This document shows positions 20,445 to 33,869 of a stretch of 61,828 bases of DNA, one piece after another. Position 1 is the first letter of the stretch, and the number at the start of each line of letters is the position of its first letter. Source of the stretch: a virus. Position numbers and translations under genes: made by a program. Under the pieces are notes generated by a model, which saw only the letters and a program-made list of their open reading frames with translations, did not search any database and was not told the DNA's origin. The stretch lies in the IMG/VR virus record IMGVR_UViG_3300022821_000021, positions 1 through 61,828 of that record; one strand, given 5' to 3'.

Positions 20445-21191
20445 GTGATTGTAACTGACATAAATGTATTGAATAACTTCTTATTTGAAGGCGTTAATGA
20501 CAAAGGTGTATTAAAGGCTGTTTTTATGGCTGGAGGTCCAGGATCAGGAAAGTCATTTGCTGCTGATAAAATATTCGGTGTTGATACGATTATGTCTGGT
20601 ACAAGTACCCTCGGATTGAAAGTAATAAATTCGGACATACAGTTCGAACGATTACTTAAAAAGGTACACATTGATCCAACCAAATTAGGACAAATGACAG
20701 ATAAATTATTTCAGTACTATACAACACGACCTGAATCACCCCGCATCAAAGCAAAGGAAACCGTCACTAAATTAAAAAAGATTTATGAACTTGGTAGATT
20801 GGGCATGGTATTGGATGGTACGGGTAAGGATTATAATAAAATAGCTAACGAACAAAGTCGCTTGGAATCAATTGGGTATGATACTGCTATGGTTTTTGTA
20901 AATACAGATTTAAAGACAGCACTACAAAGAAACCGACAGCGCGAACGCGTAATCAAAGATGACCTGGTCGCCGCTTATTGGAAAAAAACGCAAGCTAATA
21001 TTGGAAAGTTCCAAACTTTATTTGGTAAATATATGTACATAGTTGATAACACCGAAATAGGTGATTTTAATAAAATACATAAAAGAAAGATATCATTGAC
21101 TACTAAATTTGTTAATAAACCAATTGATAATAATATAGGTAGACAATGGATTGAAAATGAATTAAAATTGAAGAGCCTAAATATAAAATGA
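20445..21191 (+). CDS. Zeta-toxin-like P-loop nucleoside/polynucleotide kinase
   Basis: A 248-residue protein from GTG 20445, with GGGAG 14 bases upstream as ribosome site. Walker A GGPGSGKS lies at about residues 28-35, followed by VINSDIQFE, a lid-like helical segment, the GMVLDGTGKD block near residue 125, and an arginine-rich NRQRER segment near 166. This is the pattern of zeta-toxin/AAA_33 kinases, which phosphorylate small nucleotides, sugars or RNA ends. It is coupled (ATGA overlap) to the adenylyltransferase gene, so a joint pathway is likely. Toxicity is not implied. Confidence 0.8.
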   Translation: MIVTDINVLNNFLFEGVNDKGVLKAVFMAGGPGSGKSFAADKIFGVDTIMSGTSTLGLKVINSDIQFERLLKKVHIDPTKLGQMTDKLFQYYTTRPESPRIKAKETVTKLKKIYELGRLGMVLDGTGKDYNKIANEQSRLESIGYDTAMVFVNTDLKTALQRNRQRERVIKDDLVAAYWKKTQANIGKFQTLFGKYMYIVDNTEIGDFNKIHKRKISLTTKFVNKPIDNNIGRQWIENELKLKSLNIK

Positions 21192-23500
21192 ATTACGGTG
21201 AATGGATAGCACATAATATTTTATCTGAAGCGGATAGAAAATCAAATGGTATAAAGACTATAGTTGCTATATACCCAGGCCGATTTCAACCCGCTGGTAA
21301 ACATCACGTTAAAACATTCAAGTGGGTAGAAACCCTTTTTGATGAAGCATGGGTAGTAACCAGCGACAAAGTACAGTTGCCGAAGTCGCCGATGAATTTT
21401 AACGAAAAAAAGAAAATATTTAATAAGCACGGTATTCGTAAAATTATACAAGTAAAAAATCCATATCAAGCTACAGAGCTATTAAGTAAATACGACCCAG
21501 AAACAACTGCTGCTGTATTTATAGTTGGAAAAAAAGATCAGGAACGGCTTGGCAGTAAGTTTTTCTCCCCGTGGAAGGGAGTAGCATCGGTAGGATATAG
21601 AAAAGGCGCGTATACATTAATTGCTCCGCATATATCTCTTAACGTTGCTGGTTATGGTGAAATGTCGGGTACTACAATTCGCCAAGCTTTGGCTCAAGAC
21701 CCGAATACACCCGAAGCTAAAAAAACATTTAAAAGTATTATGGGATGGCACGACCATTCTATCCATAAAATGATATCAAGTAGATTACGTGTAAATGAAT
21801 TATTAGAAAAATTTATAAATAATAGTGATTTCTCGGATAGTATAACCGAAGCAAGTTTATCAAGTTTATCATCATTGGGTGATGTGGATGATGGCCCGCA
21901 GATGTGGTATCGTACAACCAATTCATATAAATCGGCAACAAATCATGTAGCAGAAAAGCTCGGAATGAAAGTAATAAATTACATAACCGGAGATTCTGAT
22001 ATGTCACTTAATAACTTATCATCTAGATTTTCACATATAACTAGATCACCATCATTTTTCCCCGCAGGTGTAGCTGGAAAGACAACTACAATTAACCAGG
22101 ACGACTTTGAATCTGTAGAAGCATTTGCAGAATGGGCAAAATATATAAAAAATATTGCGTCATCAGTGGGAATGCAATTTTTGGATTACCTTGGCGCTGA
22201 AATGTCAACTGATTATTCGGAGCCAAACACTCAGACCGATGACTTGGTATCTGAGGGGCTCCTTGTCGAGTTTCCCAATGATGATGAGGGAAAAGTACAG
22301 TGTATGGTGTGTGGGTGTATGATGAAACAAATTCAATACAGACATTTAAAATATAGCCATAATGATATGACTATGGTGGAATATAAAGATAAATACCCAA
22401 ATGCACCACTTATAGCAGACTCCGTTAAAAACACAGGTAATAAAAATCCGATGGCTAATTCCACTGTTAGGGAAACACATAAAAAAAGTGTAACCACAGA
22501 TGAATACCGAAAAAAACAAAGAATTGGTTCTACTGGCAGAATCGCAAGCGATGAAGCTAAGAAAAAAATGTCTGAAAATAATTCGATGCATTCTTCTGAA
22601 AACAAAAAAAAGGTATCGGATGGTGTTCGGAAATCATATGAGAAAGAACCATCGTTGAGAGAAAAGAGTTCGATAACTGGTAAGAAATATGGATTTGGTA
22701 ATAGTAAGACACAAGATAAAATAGCTAAAGCTCGAAATTGGACTTTATTGGAAGATAAGCCAGCATTTGAACGTTACCAAGAAAAAGTTAGACGTTTATC
22801 TAATGAAAACTATCAAACATATTTCAATGAAATACCGAATGCTAAAAAGCGGAGTAGAGATTTTCATTTAGACCATAAGTTATCAATACATGATGGCTTT
22901 AATAAAAATATTCCAGTTGAAATTATCTCTCATTATACAAACTTTGAAATGATGTGTGGTAGGTTGAATGAAAGTAAAGGGGGTAATTCAACAATATCAT
23001 TAAGAGAATTGATTGTTGATATAGAATCATCCAATCATCCAATGGGATCTCGTAATATCAAGCAATTACTCACTTGTGGCGGAGCATACGGACACATGTC
23101 GCACCCATTTGATGATAAAGAGTTAACCTTCGGTGATATGAAGCATATTATAACTACATCATTACAAGGTAATTTAAGTATGAATACAATGCCCACTGAA
23201 AAATGTATATATCCAGACGCGATATTACAGTTGAAAAACAACGGCCGAATGAAGATTTCTGATTTTGTTGACAGTGGTATAACAGATGATGTATTATCAT
23301 ATGACTCGGATACAGATTCTATTGAGTATAGACCTGTAACTAATAAATTTAATAACGGTGATTCTGATGAATGGCTTGAAATTGTACTTGATGATGATAG
23401 TATTATACAAGTAACACCTAACCATAAAATATATATAAAGAATAGAGGATTTGTTCGAGCAGATGAATTAATACTTGGAGATGATTTAACTGTTATTTGA
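21188..23500 (+). CDS. NMN adenylyltransferase-like/nucleotidyltransferase, N-terminal precursor ending in an N-intein
   Basis: A 770-residue protein. Residues about 22-175 are a cytidylyl/NMN-adenylyltransferase-like domain: VAIYPGRFQPAGKHH has the nucleotide-binding (H/T)xGH variant GKHH, and GEMSGTTIRQAL matches the ISSTxIR motif. Residues 175-355 are an unassigned linker domain. About residues 365-600 are an inserted HNH endonuclease. Residues about 601-672 return to the host protein (CGGAYGHMSHPFDD, LTFGDMKHII) and end in MPTEK. Cys673 to the stop is an N-terminal intein half. After trans-splicing, Lys672 would join the Thr-Asp-Gly of the C-extein at 24468, recreating a KTDG nucleotidyltransferase motif. 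Confidence 0.85.
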   Translation: MNYGEWIAHNILSEADRKSNGIKTIVAIYPGRFQPAGKHHVKTFKWVETLFDEAWVVTSDKVQLPKSPMNFNEKKKIFNKHGIRKIIQVKNPYQATELLSKYDPETTAAVFIVGKKDQERLGSKFFSPWKGVASVGYRKGAYTLIAPHISLNVAGYGEMSGTTIRQALAQDPNTPEAKKTFKSIMGWHDHSIHKMISSRLRVNELLEKFINNSDFSDSITEASLSSLSSLGDVDDGPQMWYRTTNSYKSATNHVAEKLGMKVINYITGDSDMSLNNLSSRFSHITRSPSFFPAGVAGKTTTINQDDFESVEAFAEWAKYIKNIASSVGMQFLDYLGAEMSTDYSEPNTQTDDLVSEGLLVEFPNDDEGKVQCMVCGCMMKQIQYRHLKYSHNDMTMVEYKDKYPNAPLIADSVKNTGNKNPMANSTVRETHKKSVTTDEYRKKQRIGSTGRIASDEAKKKMSENNSMHSSENKKKVSDGVRKSYEKEPSLREKSSITGKKYGFGNSKTQDKIAKARNWTLLEDKPAFERYQEKVRRLSNENYQTYFNEIPNAKKRSRDFHLDHKLSIHDGFNKNIPVEIISHYTNFEMMCGRLNESKGGNSTISLRELIVDIESSNHPMGSRNIKQLLTCGGAYGHMSHPFDDKELTFGDMKHIITTSLQGNLSMNTMPTEKCIYPDAILQLKNNGRMKISDFVDSGITDDVLSYDSDTDSIEYRPVTNKFNNGDSDEWLEIVLDDDSIIQVTPNHKIYIKNRGFVRADELILGDDLTVI
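22280..22995 (+). mobile_element. In-frame HNH homing-endonuclease insertion inside the adenylyltransferase gene
   Basis: A segment of about 235 codons with no stop sits between two host domains. It begins with a C2H2-like finger (CMVCGC, then YRHLKYSHND), then a NUMOD3-like lysine/serine-rich tract (GNKNPMANS, SDEAKKKMSENNSMHS), then an HNH-type core (FHLDHKLSIHDGF, NFEMMCGRLNESKGG). No intein blocks flank it, so it is either retained as an extra domain or was inserted as a free-standing gene that happens to keep frame. The borders are approximate. Confidence 0.75.
23204..23497 (+). mobile_element. N-terminal half of a split intein
   Basis: 98 residues from Cys673 of the precursor to its end. 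The splice junction is Lys-Cys at 23201-23206. Block A opens with CIYPDAILQL. The block B-like segment is VTPNHKIYI (TxxH pattern), followed by GFVRADELILGDDL, which is the usual end of an N-intein. The ORF then stops at TGA 23498. The matching C-half lies 863 bases downstream. Splicing in trans is inferred from the motifs. Confidence 0.9.
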
Positions 23501-23525
23501 TACCATCCGTTTTTCGGAAATTAGA

Positions 23526-23533
23526 TATTTATA
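23526..23533 (+). promoter_or_regulatory. Late-promoter-like element before the split-intein endonuclease
   Basis: TTAGATATTTATATAT ends only 6 bases before ATG 23540, so a transcript started about 7 bases on would have almost no leader. Confidence 0.5.
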
Positions 23534-23539
23534 TATAAT

Positions 23540-24394
23540 ATGAATAAACTTTGGAAATGTACATATTGTTCTGCAAAAATAGGTGTGATTAATAAACAAC
23601 AAATATCAAATCATTATAAGAGCTGTAATCAATATAAATTATACAAAAATAGAATCTTAACTAAAGAATTTCTGTATAATGAATATGTTAATGTTGGTAA
23701 GGCTGCTAATCAAATTTCACAAGAAATCGGAATTGGGGTAAACCCAATTATTAAAGCACTATGTAAATTTGAAATCCCAACTAGATCGGTTAAAGAATCT
23801 AATAATATGAAATTATATAGAGATCGAATAAACTCTACTAATTTAGAAAAGTATGGGGCAGTAAATCCATTAAGTAAAAATACTATACCATACCATACGA
23901 AAAACAAAACAGTATTAACTAAATATGGTGTTGATAATGTTAGAAAGGCTCCTGTGATTATTGATAAAATAAAGAAAAAACTTCGAGTTTGGCGTGACGA
24001 AAACGGCCATTCTACGTTAGGACATAAACATTCAACAGTTACCAAACTGAAAATGAGAGAAAGTAATATAAAATATCGTAATACATTGGATAAATGTAAA
24101 CAATATTGTTATAACAAAAATTCAATTTCGATTCTTGAAGCCAAAGCTAAAGAACTCGGAATAACTGATATACAACACGCTGAAAATGGCGGCGAATTTC
24201 AAATTTGTGGCTATTTTGTGGATGGGTATAGTAAAGAAACTAATACAGTTTTTGAGTATGATGAAAAATATCATTTCAGAAACGGTAAATTAAAAGATAA
24301 AAATATTCAACGTCAATATATTATAATGAATGAATTGAATTGTAAATTTATACGGATTAATTATGAAAATAAAATCTATCACGAAAGTAAATAA
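23540..24394 (+). CDS. Homing endonuclease between the split-intein halves (Vsr-like / EDxHD type)
   Basis: A 284-residue protein. The N-terminus has a C2HC-type finger (CTYCSAKIG, HYKSC) and a helix-turn-helix-like segment (GKAANQISQEIGIGVNPIIK). A NUMOD-like NLEKYGAVNPLSK repeat follows. The C-terminal nuclease shows VFEYDEKYHF with Glu, Asp and His, then KDKNIQRQYIIMNELNCKFIRI, the pattern of Vsr-related homing nucleases. Its last 32 bases overlap the start of the C-intein gene. A late-promoter-like TATTTATA ends only 6 bases before ATG 23540, so its own transcript would be nearly leaderless. Confidence 0.82.
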   Translation: MNKLWKCTYCSAKIGVINKQQISNHYKSCNQYKLYKNRILTKEFLYNEYVNVGKAANQISQEIGIGVNPIIKALCKFEIPTRSVKESNNMKLYRDRINSTNLEKYGAVNPLSKNTIPYHTKNKTVLTKYGVDNVRKAPVIIDKIKKKLRVWRDENGHSTLGHKHSTVTKLKMRESNIKYRNTLDKCKQYCYNKNSISILEAKAKELGITDIQHAENGGEFQICGYFVDGYSKETNTVFEYDEKYHFRNGKLKDKNIQRQYIIMNELNCKFIRINYENKIYHESK

Positions 24395-24467
24395 GCTACA
24401 AACTAGATATGATATTCAAGTTGAAGGCCGCAAGTGTTATTATGCTAATGGTATTTTAGTGCATAAT
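24363..24467 (+). mobile_element. C-terminal half of the split intein
   Basis: The first 35 codons of the downstream precursor, ending in His34-Asn35 with Thr36 as the +1 nucleophile. The length and the YDIQVEG...ANGILVHN pattern are typical of C-inteins. It starts at an ATG inside the end of the endonuclease gene, so the endonuclease and the C-half overlap by 32 bases. Together with the 98-residue N-half the intein totals 133 residues. Confidence 0.9.
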
Positions 24468-25535
24468 ACTGATGGTCAAAATTTATTTATTACTTGGGCT
24501 AATGGTAAGTTAATGGCAGCAAGAAATACCGGTGACTTAAAACGTGGTGGTATGGACTATAAAGCAATTGCTGCAAAATTCGCAGGACGTGGTAATATAG
24601 AAAAAGCTTTTACTCTTGCTATGAAAGATTTATCTTCGGCCATATCATCCATAAATGATAAGCAACGACAGAAAATATTTGATAACGGTGGTAATTGGGT
24701 AAACATGGAAATCATTTATCCACCATCTGAAAATGTTATTTCATATGATGCACCATATCTTCAATTCCACAATGTATTACAGTATTCTGGTAGCCAAGCT
24801 AATGGCGAAGTAAAGGATGGCGCTCGTATGTTGGCCGGTATGATTAAGCAGGTAAATAAGAATTTACAAAAAAACTTTGCTATCATTGGTCCCAATGTAC
24901 TGAAGCTTCTTAAAAATAAAGACTTCGCCGAAAAGAGTTCGTATTATATTTCTAAAGTAGATACTCTCAGAAAGAAATTTAAATTGTTAGATACGTCAAC
25001 CCTCGCTGAATATCATCAAGCTTGGTGGGAAGCTTTCATAGAATCTAAATTTGGTGCTCTTGACAATAATATTAAAGTAGGATTGGTAAATCGCTGGGCC
25101 TTCTTTGACAAAAGTTTTAGGTTAAATCGCCAAAATATACCTGATGAAGCCGTTCTTGCGAAAGCAATTGAATTTGATAAAGGGTCACATTCAGATCAAG
25201 TAAAGAAAAATATGTTTCCATTTGAAGTATTGTTTTTTGAACTCGGCGTAGACGTACTTAAAAACGTAGAGAGTTTCCTCGCTGTTAATCCAGATAAGGC
25301 TGTACAGAATATACGCAATCAAGTTGCCAAAGCAATTACAGATGTTCGAAAGGGTGGTGATTTAAAGAAACTTAAAAGAATAGATACGCAATTGGCTAGA
25401 ATCAAAGCAATTGGTGGATTTGATACTATTATTCCATCCGAAGGATTGGTATTTGTATCCAATGGTAAGACTTATAAATTAACCGGCAGCTTCGGCCCCG
25501 TGAATCAAATAGCAGGATTAATGAATTTTGATTAA
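24363..25535 (+). CDS. C-terminal precursor: C-intein half plus KxDG nucleotidyltransferase (ligase-like) extein
   Basis: A 390-residue protein. Residues 1-35 are a C-intein: YDIQVEGRKCYYANGILVHN contains block F and the terminal His-Asn of block G. Residue Thr36 is the first extein residue. The extein starts TDGQNLFITW and has AARNTGDL, VNMEIIYPPSENVISYD near residue 125 and, at the end, EGLVFVSNGKTYKLTGSFGP. With the upstream Lys these read as motifs I, III, IV and V of the covalent nucleotidyltransferase (ATP/NAD ligase, capping enzyme) superfamily. The substrate is unknown. RNA or DNA ligation is the likeliest chemistry. Confidence 0.85.
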   Translation: MKIKSITKVNKLQTRYDIQVEGRKCYYANGILVHNTDGQNLFITWANGKLMAARNTGDLKRGGMDYKAIAAKFAGRGNIEKAFTLAMKDLSSAISSINDKQRQKIFDNGGNWVNMEIIYPPSENVISYDAPYLQFHNVLQYSGSQANGEVKDGARMLAGMIKQVNKNLQKNFAIIGPNVLKLLKNKDFAEKSSYYISKVDTLRKKFKLLDTSTLAEYHQAWWEAFIESKFGALDNNIKVGLVNRWAFFDKSFRLNRQNIPDEAVLAKAIEFDKGSHSDQVKKNMFPFEVLFFELGVDVLKNVESFLAVNPDKAVQNIRNQVAKAITDVRKGGDLKKLKRIDTQLARIKAIGGFDTIIPSEGLVFVSNGKTYKLTGSFGPVNQIAGLMNFD

Positions 25536-27597: not shown

Positions 27598-29619
27598 ATG
27601 AGCAATCCTAATTTAAAACAGCTTATAGCATCGGAGTACAAAAAGTGTGCAGCTGATCCAATATACTTTATGCGTAAGTATTGTCATATTCAGCACCCAA
27701 CACAGGGCAAAATGCTGTTTAATCTTTATCCATTTCAAGAAAAAGCATTAGATGATATTCAATCTCATAGATATGAAATTATATTAAAGTCTAGGCAGCT
27801 TGGTATATCTACGCTTGTTGCTGGATACGCATTACACCAAATGACATTCAAAGAAGACTTTAACGTACTTGTAATTGCTACATCAAGGGATGTAGCAAAA
27901 AACATGGTTACTAAAGTTCGTGTCATGTATGACTATTTACCATCTTGGTTAAAAGAACAAACGGATACAGATAATAAATTGTCGCTTAGATTCAAAAACG
28001 GGTCTCAAATAAAAGCCATTTCATCGACTCCGCAATCAGGAAGATCGGAAGCGCTTTCGCTTCTTATTTTTGATGAAGCAGCGTTCATTGATTATATCGA
28101 TGATATTTGGATTGCAGCGCAACAAACATTGGCTACTGGTGGTAGGTGTATTGCATTATCAACACCAAACGGTACTGGTAATTGGTTTCATAAGCAATGG
28201 AAGTTCTCAGAAGAGGGTTCAACCAAAGCCCAGTTTAATTCACTTAGACTCCATTGGTCAGTACACCCAGATAGAGACCAATCTTGGAGAGACGAACAAG
28301 ACGAATTATTAGGTGAAAGAGCGGCAGCTCAAGAATGCGATTGTTTGTGGGGCGAAAGCCGAATTAAAGTACGTGATTCTAAAACCAAAGAAGAATTTTA
28401 TATTACATTATCGGAACTTTATAATACAAATATGATATTTAAACAGAACTTACAGTATGAAATATCAACGCCAAGTGGATATCAGCCATTTACTGGTATC
28501 CGTAAATTAGAAAAAGCTTCTCATTACGTTATATCATTATCCAATAATATCGTTTTAAAATGTTCTACTACGCATCCATTTATGTATAATGGCGCGGAAA
28601 TATTAGCAAATAAATTGGAAGTAGGATCTCTAATTGATTCCGATGTACCGGATACACAATATGTAACCGTAGTAAACATACAATTGATACATAAATCCAT
28701 TGAATTATATGATATAGTTGAAGTAGATAATGGTAATATCTTTAATGTGGATGGTGTGGTTTCTCATAATTGTGATTTTATTTCATCTGGTAACACACTT
28801 ATACGTGGTGAATTAATAAAGTGGTATGAAGATAACCAAGTTTCCGAACCAAAAGAAAAAAGAGGTCCTGGCGGTGAATTGTGGGTATGGAAAGACCCCG
28901 ATTACTCACGCGATTATATGTTGGTAGCTGACGTTGCAAGGGGTGACGCATCAGATTATTCTGCGTTTCACGTAGTAGATGTTGAAGCGTGTGAGCAGGT
29001 AGCTGAATATAAGGGGCTAATTGGAACAAAAGAATTCGGTAATATGATGGTCAACGTGGCCACCGAATACAATAATGCGCTTTTGGTTATTGAAAATGCA
29101 AATATTGGTTGGGCAGCGATACAACCTGCAATCGACAGAGAATATAATAATTTATATTACACGTACAGACACGAAGGAGTTACGGACGCCGCGGTACAAT
29201 TGGAAAAAGGATATGATATAAAAGATAAGGCGCAAATGACGCCAGGATTTACAACGTCCGGCAAAACCCGCCCGCTTTTGATATCAAAACTTGATATGTA
29301 TAGTAGAGAAAAATCATGTATTATCAAATCTCAACGATTAGTTGATGAATGGTACATGTTTATTTGGAAAGGATCAAGATGTGAAGCTCAACGTGGGTAT
29401 AATGATGACCTAACAATGGCATGGTCAATAGGATTATATATCAGAGACTATGCACTTAAACTTCGTAATGACGGCATAGAACTCAATAAAAATTCACTTA
29501 GATTATTTCAGAAAGTAGGTGGCCCATCGGGCGTTTACACCGGCAACAATGCAAATGCTCATAATTCATTGAATATGAATGTGAACGGAAACGAAGAAAG
29601 CTTGAAGTGGCTATTATAA
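27598..29619 (+). CDS. 17: Terminase large subunit gp17 interrupted by a mini-intein
   Basis: A 673-residue precursor. The ATPase domain has the adapted Walker A SRQLGIST near residue 65, Walker B LLIFDEAAFI near 157 and the coupling motif ALSTPNGTGN. The RNase-H-like nuclease has VADVARGDASDYSAF, VIENANIGW and GYNDDLTMAW as acidic motifs. Between the two domains residues 249-391 are an intein, and removing it restores AQECD-CDFISSGNTLI, the usual T4-type terminase sequence. The motor cuts and packages concatemeric DNA through the portal encoded next door. The small subunit is not in the window. Confidence 0.95.
   Translation: MSNPNLKQLIASEYKKCAADPIYFMRKYCHIQHPTQGKMLFNLYPFQEKALDDIQSHRYEIILKSRQLGISTLVAGYALHQMTFKEDFNVLVIATSRDVAKNMVTKVRVMYDYLPSWLKEQTDTDNKLSLRFKNGSQIKAISSTPQSGRSEALSLLIFDEAAFIDYIDDIWIAAQQTLATGGRCIALSTPNGTGNWFHKQWKFSEEGSTKAQFNSLRLHWSVHPDRDQSWRDEQDELLGERAAAQECDCLWGESRIKVRDSKTKEEFYITLSELYNTNMIFKQNLQYEISTPSGYQPFTGIRKLEKASHYVISLSNNIVLKCSTTHPFMYNGAEILANKLEVGSLIDSDVPDTQYVTVVNIQLIHKSIELYDIVEVDNGNIFNVDGVVSHNCDFISSGNTLIRGELIKWYEDNQVSEPKEKRGPGGELWVWKDPDYSRDYMLVADVARGDASDYSAFHVVDVEACEQVAEYKGLIGTKEFGNMMVNVATEYNNALLVIENANIGWAAIQPAIDREYNNLYYTYRHEGVTDAAVQLEKGYDIKDKAQMTPGFTTSGKTRPLLISKLDMYSREKSCIIKSQRLVDEWYMFIWKGSRCEAQRGYNDDLTMAWSIGLYIRDYALKLRNDGIELNKNSLRLFQKVGGPSGVYTGNNANAHNSLNMNVNGNEESLKWLL
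28342..28770 (+). mobile_element. Mini-intein in the terminase gene
   Basis: 143 residues without an endonuclease domain. It opens with CLWGESRIKV and has STTHPF (block B, TxxH) followed by AEILANKLEVGSLI. It closes with ELYDIVEVDNGNIFNVDGVV and Ser-His-Asn, and the +1 extein residue is Cys. The intact block set suggests self-splicing is functional. The insertion point is the hinge between the ATPase and nuclease domains. Confidence 0.93.
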
Positions 29620-33099: not shown

Positions 33100-33237
33100 A
33101 TGAAGTCAAAGAAAACTCATATTGTAGAAGAACTGACAAGTAAGGATATAAAAAGAATCCAAGCTATAATACGAAAGGAAGTAGCGGAAGTTTTTTTTGA
33201 TTTATATGTAAAACGATCTGTATGGAAAACACCATGA
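33100..33237 (+). CDS. 45-residue conserved small protein before the prohead protease
   Basis: ATG 33100 to TGA 33235-33237. The product is basic and helical (LTSKDIKRIQAIIRKEVAEV, then FDLYVKRSVWK). Its stop overlaps the ATG of the protease gene as ATGA, implying coupled translation. Small proteins with this RxIxRKEVAxxxFDLYxKR pattern occur at the same place in other T4-like phages as I remember them, so it is likely real. The function is unknown, possibly a head-core piece. Confidence 0.65.
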   Translation: MKSKKTHIVEELTSKDIKRIQAIIRKEVAEVFFDLYVKRSVWKTP

Positions 33238-33869
33238 AAACTTTATTAATTGATTATACTACCTTTGAAATATCTCCCGCAATGGTGTTGGAGTCAGAGC
33301 AAAAAAATAATGGTAAGGTTATAGTAACTGGCGTAATCCAACGTGCTGAAGCTCCTAACCAAAACGGTAGGGTATATCCTAAGCGAATATTAGAGCGTGA
33401 AGTTATCAAATATATTGGTAGAGAAATAAAAGAAAATCGTGCACTCGGTGAACTTGACCATCCGGAATCATCGGTAGTTAATCTAAAAAACGTATCCCAT
33501 ATATTTAGAAATATATGGTGGGAAGGTAATGATGTTATAGGTAAAGTTGAAGTACTGTCAACTCCATCCGGAAATATTTTAAGAGAACTATTGAAAAGTC
33601 AAGTAGCACTTGGTATTAGTTCCAGAGGAATGGGTTCGGTTGAAGCTACTGGCCGACAAGATACGGTAACTGTTAAAGATGATTTTGACCTTGTGTGTTG
33701 GGATTTCGTAAGTAATCCATCTACTCATGGTGCATTTATGGCACCAAATGGTATATCTGAATCTGTAGTATCTTCCGCAACTGATCGATATTTAAAAATA
33801 AATACATTGGTGTCAGACATATTATGTGAATTAACTTGCCAATGTTCAATACCAACGAGTACTAAATAA
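33234..33869 (+). CDS. 21: Prohead core protease gp21
   Basis: A 211-residue protein from ATG 33234; an upstream in-frame ATG at 33222 would add four residues, but the ATGA overlap favours 33234. The family signatures are VIQRAEAPNQNGRVYPKRIL, the catalytic His in ELDHPES (residue 76) and the Ser in LGISSRGMGS (129 or 130). The enzyme cleaves scaffold, core and capsid N-termini after (I/L)xE-type sites during head maturation. It sits two genes before bS21 and upstream of scaffold and capsid, as in T4. Confidence 0.93.
   Translation: MKTLLIDYTTFEISPAMVLESEQKNNGKVIVTGVIQRAEAPNQNGRVYPKRILEREVIKYIGREIKENRALGELDHPESSVVNLKNVSHIFRNIWWEGNDVIGKVEVLSTPSGNILRELLKSQVALGISSRGMGSVEATGRQDTVTVKDDFDLVCWDFVSNPSTHGAFMAPNGISESVVSSATDRYLKINTLVSDILCELTCQCSIPTSTK

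What the first reader, a model, noticed from the sequence alone, without database searches (positions are those of the whole stretch)
23195..24482. Split intein sits exactly inside the presumed catalytic KxDG motif
Joining the exteins gives MPTEK-TDGQN, so the intein lies directly after the lysine of KTDG. That motif is motif I of covalent nucleotidyltransferases (ligases and capping enzymes). The C-extein also shows motif III-like MEIIYPP, motif IV EGLVF and motif V KLTG segments. The enzyme should therefore be dead until trans-splicing, which makes the intein a possible activity switch.
Basis: partly seen in the sequence, partly recalled or inferred. Interest (0 to 1): 0.85.

Follow-up and report, generated by a model that had tools for sequence, protein, structure and literature searches.

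The report
Split intein inside phage RNA-ligase-like enzyme
A marine phage gene for an unrecognised RNA-ligase-like enzyme is broken into two pieces by a self-splicing protein element placed exactly beside the enzyme's predicted catalytic lysine, most likely because that spot is a conserved target for a mobile element rather than because the phage uses it as a switch.

Summary
The N-part ORF ends its extein at K672. The C-part resumes at T of TDGQN, and a split intein with all expected splicing residues lies between them, together with a free-standing endonuclease ORF. At least 115 relatives read EK|TDGQN without a gap, and K, D and G are invariant in 52 diverse homologues. A confident fold model (pLDDT 84) of an uninterrupted homologue matches polynucleotide ligases first, led by Naegleria RNA ligase (Z 8.8) and T4 Rnl2 (7.9). 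The lysine sits in register with known catalytic lysines. No Pfam, PHROG, NCBIfam or PDB sequence family names this domain, so the host enzyme appears to be an undescribed ligase-superfamily family.

The "activity switch" reading is not supported. The site is occupied in only 7 loci found: split inteins with or without an endonuclease, and one contiguous mini-intein. Intein and endonuclease are both under purifying selection. The site is the second most conserved of 40 possible C/S/T junctions, the general rule for inteins. It is best read as a "fractured gene", a known kind, at a new site in a new host family.

Side finding: relatives expose the ligase domain at Gly-Gly via a prohead-protease-like site or an internal start codon.

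The parts
20445..21191 (+). P-loop kinase (AAA_33 / zeta-toxin / polynucleotide-kinase-like), overlaps the start of the fractured gene
   Evidence: Pfam AAA_33 6.7e-7, Zeta_toxin 5.5e-6; PHROG polynucleotide kinase 3e-4; upstream in 40 of 78 related loci
21188..23203 (+). N-extein (672 aa): NMNAT/PPAT-like nucleotidylyltransferase domain, middle domain, HNH insert, first 42 residues of ligase-like domain ending in predicted catalytic K672
   Evidence: CTP_transf_like 7e-4; profile hit to M. jannaschii NMNAT 1f9a 2.7e-4
22271..23077 (+). Second, independent in-frame mobile insert (zinc-finger + HNH endonuclease-like) between LLVE and GGAYGHM of the interdomain linker; not an intein
   Evidence: empty in L002 and L006, present without the intein in L004; diverged HNH inserts in the same linker in L076-L078 and L178; no group I intron found
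23204..23497 (+). Split intein, N-terminal half (98 aa: C1 ... TPNH ...), stop at 23498-23500
   Evidence: Pfam Intein_splicing; homologous halves at the same site in 6 other loci
23540..24394 (+). Free-standing homing-endonuclease-like ORF (284 aa) between the halves, C-terminal DUF559-like nuclease region
   Evidence: counterparts between the halves in L003 (53% id) and L006 (51%); DUF559-annotated hit; dN/dS 0.22 for L003 vs L006
24363..24467 (+). Split intein, C-terminal half (35 aa, ...YYANGILVHN), overlapping the endonuclease ORF end by 32 nt in another frame
   Evidence: Pfam Intein_splicing profile 122-155
24468..25532 (+). C-extein (355 aa): rest of ligase-like domain with motifs Ia (ARN), III (MEIIYPP), IV (EGLVF), V (YKLTG), ending about 18 residues after motif V
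33222..33869 (+). T4 gp21-like prohead protease (context for the putative L/I-x-E site before the ligase domain in relatives)
   Evidence: PHROG 207 5.2e-54; 36% identity to T4 gp21, E=6e-30

Best explanation
This is a fractured gene. A mobile split intein, with a free-standing homing endonuclease gene between its halves, interrupts a phage multidomain enzyme (NMNAT-like nucleotidylyltransferase + RNA-ligase-like covalent nucleotidyltransferase) exactly between the predicted catalytic Lys and the next residue of motif I (K|TDG). The two ORFs are translated separately (shown: separate ORFs in different frames). The intein halves associate and trans-splice, using C1, the TPNH block, HN and +1 Thr (inferred from conserved residues and purifying selection). 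This joins ...TEK to TDGQN... and restores an uninterrupted ligase motif I as found in empty-site relatives (shown by sequence). The restored lysine then takes AMP (or GMP) from a nucleotide cofactor and passes it to a nucleic-acid end, most likely RNA, for end sealing (inferred from fold and motifs). The element sits there because motif I is nearly unmutable, which makes it a stable homing target that cannot be lost imprecisely (inferred).
For: Precise junction and splice residues. Occupied sites: 7 loci - window/L001, L003, L006 and L172 with an endonuclease ORF, L176 and L177 split without one, L178 contiguous. All four combinations of intein and HNH insert occur: L002 neither, L004 HNH only, L006 intein only, L003/window both, so they move independently. 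dN/dS for L003 vs L006: N-intein 0.09, endonuclease 0.22, C-extein 0.19. Junction ranks 2nd most conserved of 40 C/S/T sites. Ligase: E41 K42 D44 G45 R61 E123 E367 G368 K379 invariant across 52 homologues, and the same motifs hold in relatives at 36-39% identity. Model pLDDT 84.3, pTM 0.81. The top 36 VIA rows are all polynucleotide ligases, first unrelated row Z 5.9. Profile alignment places EK[TL]DGQN on EKIHGTN of T4 Rnl2 (P=0.0018; unrelated domain P=0.31).
Against: Trans-splicing and homing are not demonstrated. No sequence family detects the ligase domain, and Foldseek E-values to solved ligases are only 5.6e-3 at best. Motif V lacks the second lysine of K-x-K (Y-K-L-T), and a large helical insertion lies between motifs IIIa and IV, so chemistry or substrate could differ from known ligases. 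The endonuclease's target was not tested.
Confidence: 0.85

Rival explanations
1. Activity switch: the split intein is kept because conditional trans-splicing times activation of the ligase during infection.
For: The break separates the catalytic lysine from all other motifs, so activity needs splicing. Inteins persist without a linked endonuclease in L176, L177 and L178. N-intein is under strong purifying selection. Conditional splicing has been reported for other inteins (for example mycobacterial DnaB, abstract of PMC7360933 seen; the paper was not read further).
Against: Most relatives lack it. Occupied alleles show three architectures including an unsplit one. The endonuclease is also under selection. 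Purifying selection on an intein is expected simply because the host gene needs splicing. No sensor feature was found.
Confidence: 0.06
2. Genes-in-pieces without splicing: the two halves assemble non-covalently into a working enzyme and the intein remnants are dead.
For: A functional gene-in-pieces after endonuclease insertion is described for Aeh1 NrdA (cited in PMC3653736).
Against: All seven inteins keep C1, TPNH, HN and +1 T, and N-intein dN/dS is 0.09. A break next to the covalent nucleophile, with unspliced intein halves attached, would be hard to tolerate.
Confidence: 0.04
3. The intein part is as in the best explanation, but the host domain is a covalent nucleotidyltransferase that is not a polynucleotide ligase: for example a capping-like guanylyltransferase, or an enzyme that transfers AMP to a protein or small molecule together with its NMNAT-like partner.
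For: Motif V lacks the second lysine; the domain ends about 18 residues after motif V with no OB-fold; it is fused to an NMNAT/PPAT-like domain; capping enzymes appear among weaker structural matches.
Against: Best structural matches are RNA ligases; the upstream kinase neighbour in about half the loci fits end repair.
Confidence: 0.25

Closest known systems
Fractured genes with split inteins and free-standing homing endonucleases (Dassa et al. 2009, NAR 37:2560; known to me and cited in held papers, text not held)
   Same: Gene split at a conserved site by a split intein; endonuclease ORF between the halves on the same strand; environmental phage-like origin
   Different: New host gene family and new insertion site, as far as I could find. 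The same site also has split alleles without endonuclease, one contiguous mini-intein, and a second endonuclease type (L172).
T4 RNA ligase 2 / Naegleria RNA ligase / TbREL1 (Rnl2-like ligases)
   Same: Fold match Z 7.2-8.8; motif I EKxxG with a following N (Rnl2 E34-K35-I-H-G-T-N40 vs EK-T-D-G-Q-N); motif III Glu, IV EG, V Lys
   Different: About 12-15% identity. Motif V is K-x-T, not K-x-K. Large helical insertion between IIIa and IV. No C-terminal domain. Fused to an NMNAT-like domain.
Inteins in catalytic sites such as VMA-a/b (PMC2814812)
   Same: Insertion in the most conserved catalytic element; precursor expected inactive
   Different: Here the -1 extein residue is itself the predicted covalent nucleophile of the host enzyme
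Phage polyvalent multidomain proteins (PMC5512222)
   Same: Multidomain phage proteins with varied enzymatic domains (L090 adds an HD domain, L176 and L086 a ParB-like domain)
   Different: A pairing of NMNAT-like and ligase-like domains is not described in the passages read

Membership tests
Fractured gene (split intein + free-standing endonuclease) | Two intein halves on separate ORFs carrying all splicing residues | tested here: met
   C1, TPNH, HN, +1T; complementary parts of Intein_splicing
Fractured gene (split intein + free-standing endonuclease) | Endonuclease gene between the halves | tested here: met
   ORF 23540-24394; counterparts in L003 and L006, different one in L172
Fractured gene (split intein + free-standing endonuclease) | Endonuclease belongs to the Vsr-related family reported with fractured genes | tested here: inconclusive
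   Only weak DUF559/REase-type matches; no informative solved relative
Fractured gene (split intein + free-standing endonuclease) | Intein-free alleles exist at the same site | tested here: met
   115 of 116 scanned empty loci encode relatives
Fractured gene (split intein + free-standing endonuclease) | Trans-splicing restores the host protein | not testable with these tools
   needs expression
Covalent nucleotidyltransferase superfamily (ligases, capping enzymes) | Motif I KxxG/KxDG with invariant Lys | tested here: met
   invariant in 52 homologues; in register with known catalytic lysines
Covalent nucleotidyltransferase superfamily (ligases, capping enzymes) | Motifs Ia (Arg), III (Glu), IV (EG), V (Lys) | tested here: met
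   R61, E123, E367-G368, K379 invariant
Covalent nucleotidyltransferase superfamily (ligases, capping enzymes) | Nucleotidyltransferase fold | tested here: met
   Z 8.8-6.2 to the first 36 rows, all ligases; first unrelated row Z 5.9; Foldseek E only 5.6e-3; predicted model only
Covalent nucleotidyltransferase superfamily (ligases, capping enzymes) | Lysine-NMP intermediate | not testable with these tools
   needs biochemistry
T4 Rnl2 family proper | Motif V K-x-K (K225, K227 of T4 Rnl2, PMC3149579) | tested here: not met
   family has invariant K379-x-T381; therefore not filed as Rnl2
T4 Rnl2 family proper | Sequence-profile match to RNA ligase families | tested here: not met
   PF09414 E=0.011 in one of 47 members only; hhalign probability 15%
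Regulatory (conditional) intein | Splicing responds to a condition and changes host activity | not testable with these tools
   no assay possible
Regulatory (conditional) intein | Intein retained across functional homologues | tested here: not met
   present in 7 loci, absent in more than 115
T4-type prohead protease substrate | L/I-x-E cleavage motif at the domain boundary | tested here: not met
   E in 122 of 166 related loci, but the window allele has LLTC at this point; proposed for relatives only, as inference

The most novel reading that the evidence does not exclude
The ligase domain is a head-packaged or separately released enzyme whose mature N-terminus is Gly-Gly, made by prohead-protease cleavage at L/I-x-E|GG in some phages and by an internal Shine-Dalgarno/ATG start in others. 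In the intein-bearing phages the split intein in motif I additionally holds this enzyme inactive until trans-splicing, making splicing a timing device in a virion-delivered RNA repair or counter-defence system.
Probability: 0.05. Interest if true: 0.85.

Novelty: new member of a known kind. Interest (0 to 1): 0.5.

Why it matters
It adds a new host family and insertion site to fractured genes. In seven alleles it offers contiguous, split-without-endonuclease and split-with-endonuclease (two types) states at one exact codon junction, a natural series for testing how split inteins arise and persist. New natural split inteins with a Lys -1 and Thr +1 junction may also be useful for protein engineering.

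Tried and rejected
Pfam, PHROGs, NCBIfam and PDB sequence searches for the ligase domain: nothing usable. First fold model from 47 close homologues was only moderate (pLDDT 67); replaced by a model from a more diverse set. Search for cellular homologues: one MAG contig only, 48% identity, contig 3.2 kb, likely viral. Direct endonuclease search in viral contigs: only the same phage and one partial hit. Group I intron at the HNH insert: Rfam gave one sub-threshold snoRNA match, taken as chance. I first took the conserved LLxEGG before the ligase domain as a universal prohead-protease site. Counting all loci showed E in 122, M in 37 and C in 7, so that claim was reduced to relatives only. gp41-1 intein letters were recalled from memory, used only as a yardstick (23% identity), and carry no weight. 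Papers on inteins in RNA ligases: none found.
Full report
Observation. The N-part ORF, 21188-23500, ends its extein at K672 (nt 23203) and then carries 98 residues of intein. The C-part ORF, 24363-25535, begins with 35 residues of intein ending HN and resumes at T (nt 24468). The halves match complementary parts of the Pfam intein splicing domain. An ORF of 284 aa lies between them in another frame and overlaps the C-part start by 32 nt.

Uninterrupted relatives. In IMG/VR, 156 pattern matches encode relatives of the C-extein, and nearly all whose sequence covers the site read TEK/SEK-TDGQN straight through. K, D and G of the motif never vary in 52 non-redundant homologues.

Is it a covalent nucleotidyltransferase? 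By sequence no library recognises the domain. An AlphaFold2 model of the L002 domain from 52 diverse homologues is confident (pLDDT 84.3, pTM 0.81). VIA-align ranks 36 polynucleotide-ligase rows first: Naegleria RNA ligase Z 8.8 (186 residues, 4.0 A), T4 Rnl2 7.9, T4 Rnl1 7.7, Trl1 7.7, TbREL1 7.4, ASFV ligase 7.0. The first unrelated row is RumA at 5.9. Foldseek alone is weaker (best E 5.6e-3, T4 Rnl1). In the earlier, poorer model the alignments to ligases begin directly after K42, and the numbering puts K42 on the catalytic lysine of T4 Rnl2 (K35, PMC3149579), Palaeococcus ligase (K92, in the entry title), T4 Rnl1 (K99, in the entry title), T7 ligase and TbREL1 (the last two residue numbers are from my own knowledge). 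Profile-profile alignment independently puts EK[TL]DGQN on EKIHGTN of the T4 Rnl2 family (P=0.0018 against 0.31 for an unrelated domain), although the reported probability is low (15%). Motif Ia R61, motif III E123, motif IV E367-G368 and motif V K379 are invariant. Two departures: motif V is K-x-T rather than K-x-K, and about 200 mostly helical residues lie between motifs IIIa and IV. I therefore place it in the superfamily as RNA-ligase-like, and not in the Rnl2 family.

The intein. Seven occupied loci were found by scanning for HN|TDGQN: window/L001, L003, L006 and L172 are split with an endonuclease ORF between the halves (that of L172 is of a different type); L176 and L177 are split with only about 60-70 nt between the halves; L178 is a contiguous mini-intein. 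All keep C1, TPNH, HN and +1 T. A separate in-frame HNH insert in the linker upstream (22271-23077) segregates independently: L002 has neither element, L004 HNH only, L006 intein only, L003 and the window both. For L003 against L006, dN/dS is 0.09 for the N-intein, 0.22 for the endonuclease and 0.19 for the C-extein, so both splicing and endonuclease appear to be under selection. The junction is the second most conserved of the 40 positions where a C, S or T follows. This matches the general finding that inteins sit in conserved, often catalytic sites (PMC2814812, PMC7765530). The large sister group with EKLDG (62 of 81 domains) lacks a usable +1 residue, consistent with its being free of this intein.

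Switch or parasite? The halves cannot be expected to act before splicing, since the lysine and the remaining motifs are on different chains. But that holds for any active-site intein. Sporadic occurrence, mixed architectures and a selected endonuclease point to a homing element. A regulatory role is not excluded, because some alleles persist without an endonuclease.

Context. The N-extein starts with an NMNAT/PPAT-like nucleotidylyltransferase domain (GRFQPxGxHH ... SGTxIR; profile hit to M. jannaschii NMNAT). A P-loop kinase gene precedes it in 40 of 78 loci. Terminase, portal, a gp21-like prohead protease and the major head protein follow. In relatives the ligase domain starts at GG[AS]xGHM. 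The residue before is E in 122 loci, forming L/I-x-E|GG, the T4 gp21 motif (PMC9026906). In 37 loci it is an in-frame ATG, with a Shine-Dalgarno-like sequence in 24 of 25 unique contexts (14 of 100 for the E alleles), and it is C in 7. Both main forms would give a protein beginning Gly-Gly, which suggests the ligase works as a separate protein. The window allele carries C there, at the end of the HNH insert, so for this phage that step is unresolved.

Verdict. It is a new member of the fractured-gene kind at a new site, in a host enzyme family that appears undescribed.

Noticed in passing
window 28342-28770: The terminase large subunit (27598-29619) carries a contiguous 143-aa mini-intein (CLWGES...VVSHN|CDF). 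The related L003 and L006 terminases are shorter open frames (535 aa, against 677 here), suggesting they lack it.
   Followed up: partly
window 22271-23077; L003, L004, L076-L078, L178: In-frame zinc-finger plus HNH endonuclease-like insert in the linker before the ligase domain, without intein or recognised intron, at the same linker in diverged phages; several of these alleles end in LLxC|GG instead of LLxE|GG.
   Followed up: partly
L094, L100, L105, L125, L128-L142 and others (37 loci), just before GGAYGHM: In-frame AAGGAG-N9-ATG internal start exactly at the ligase domain boundary inside a long open polyprotein frame, where other relatives have an L/I-x-E prohead-protease-like site: two apparent routes to the same Gly-Gly N-terminus.
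   Followed up: partly
L087/L089 and L172: Standalone ligase-domain genes whose short N-terminal peptides (MKFLKSYEEFLNENLILE|GG; MKTKILNFNQFLTEKYEVKLYESLLLE|GG) resemble T4 capsid targeting sequences (resemblance recalled from memory).
   Followed up: no
L090:2-5092: About 1700-aa phage polyprotein joining HD hydrolase, NMNAT-like and ligase-like domains with long linkers.
   Followed up: no
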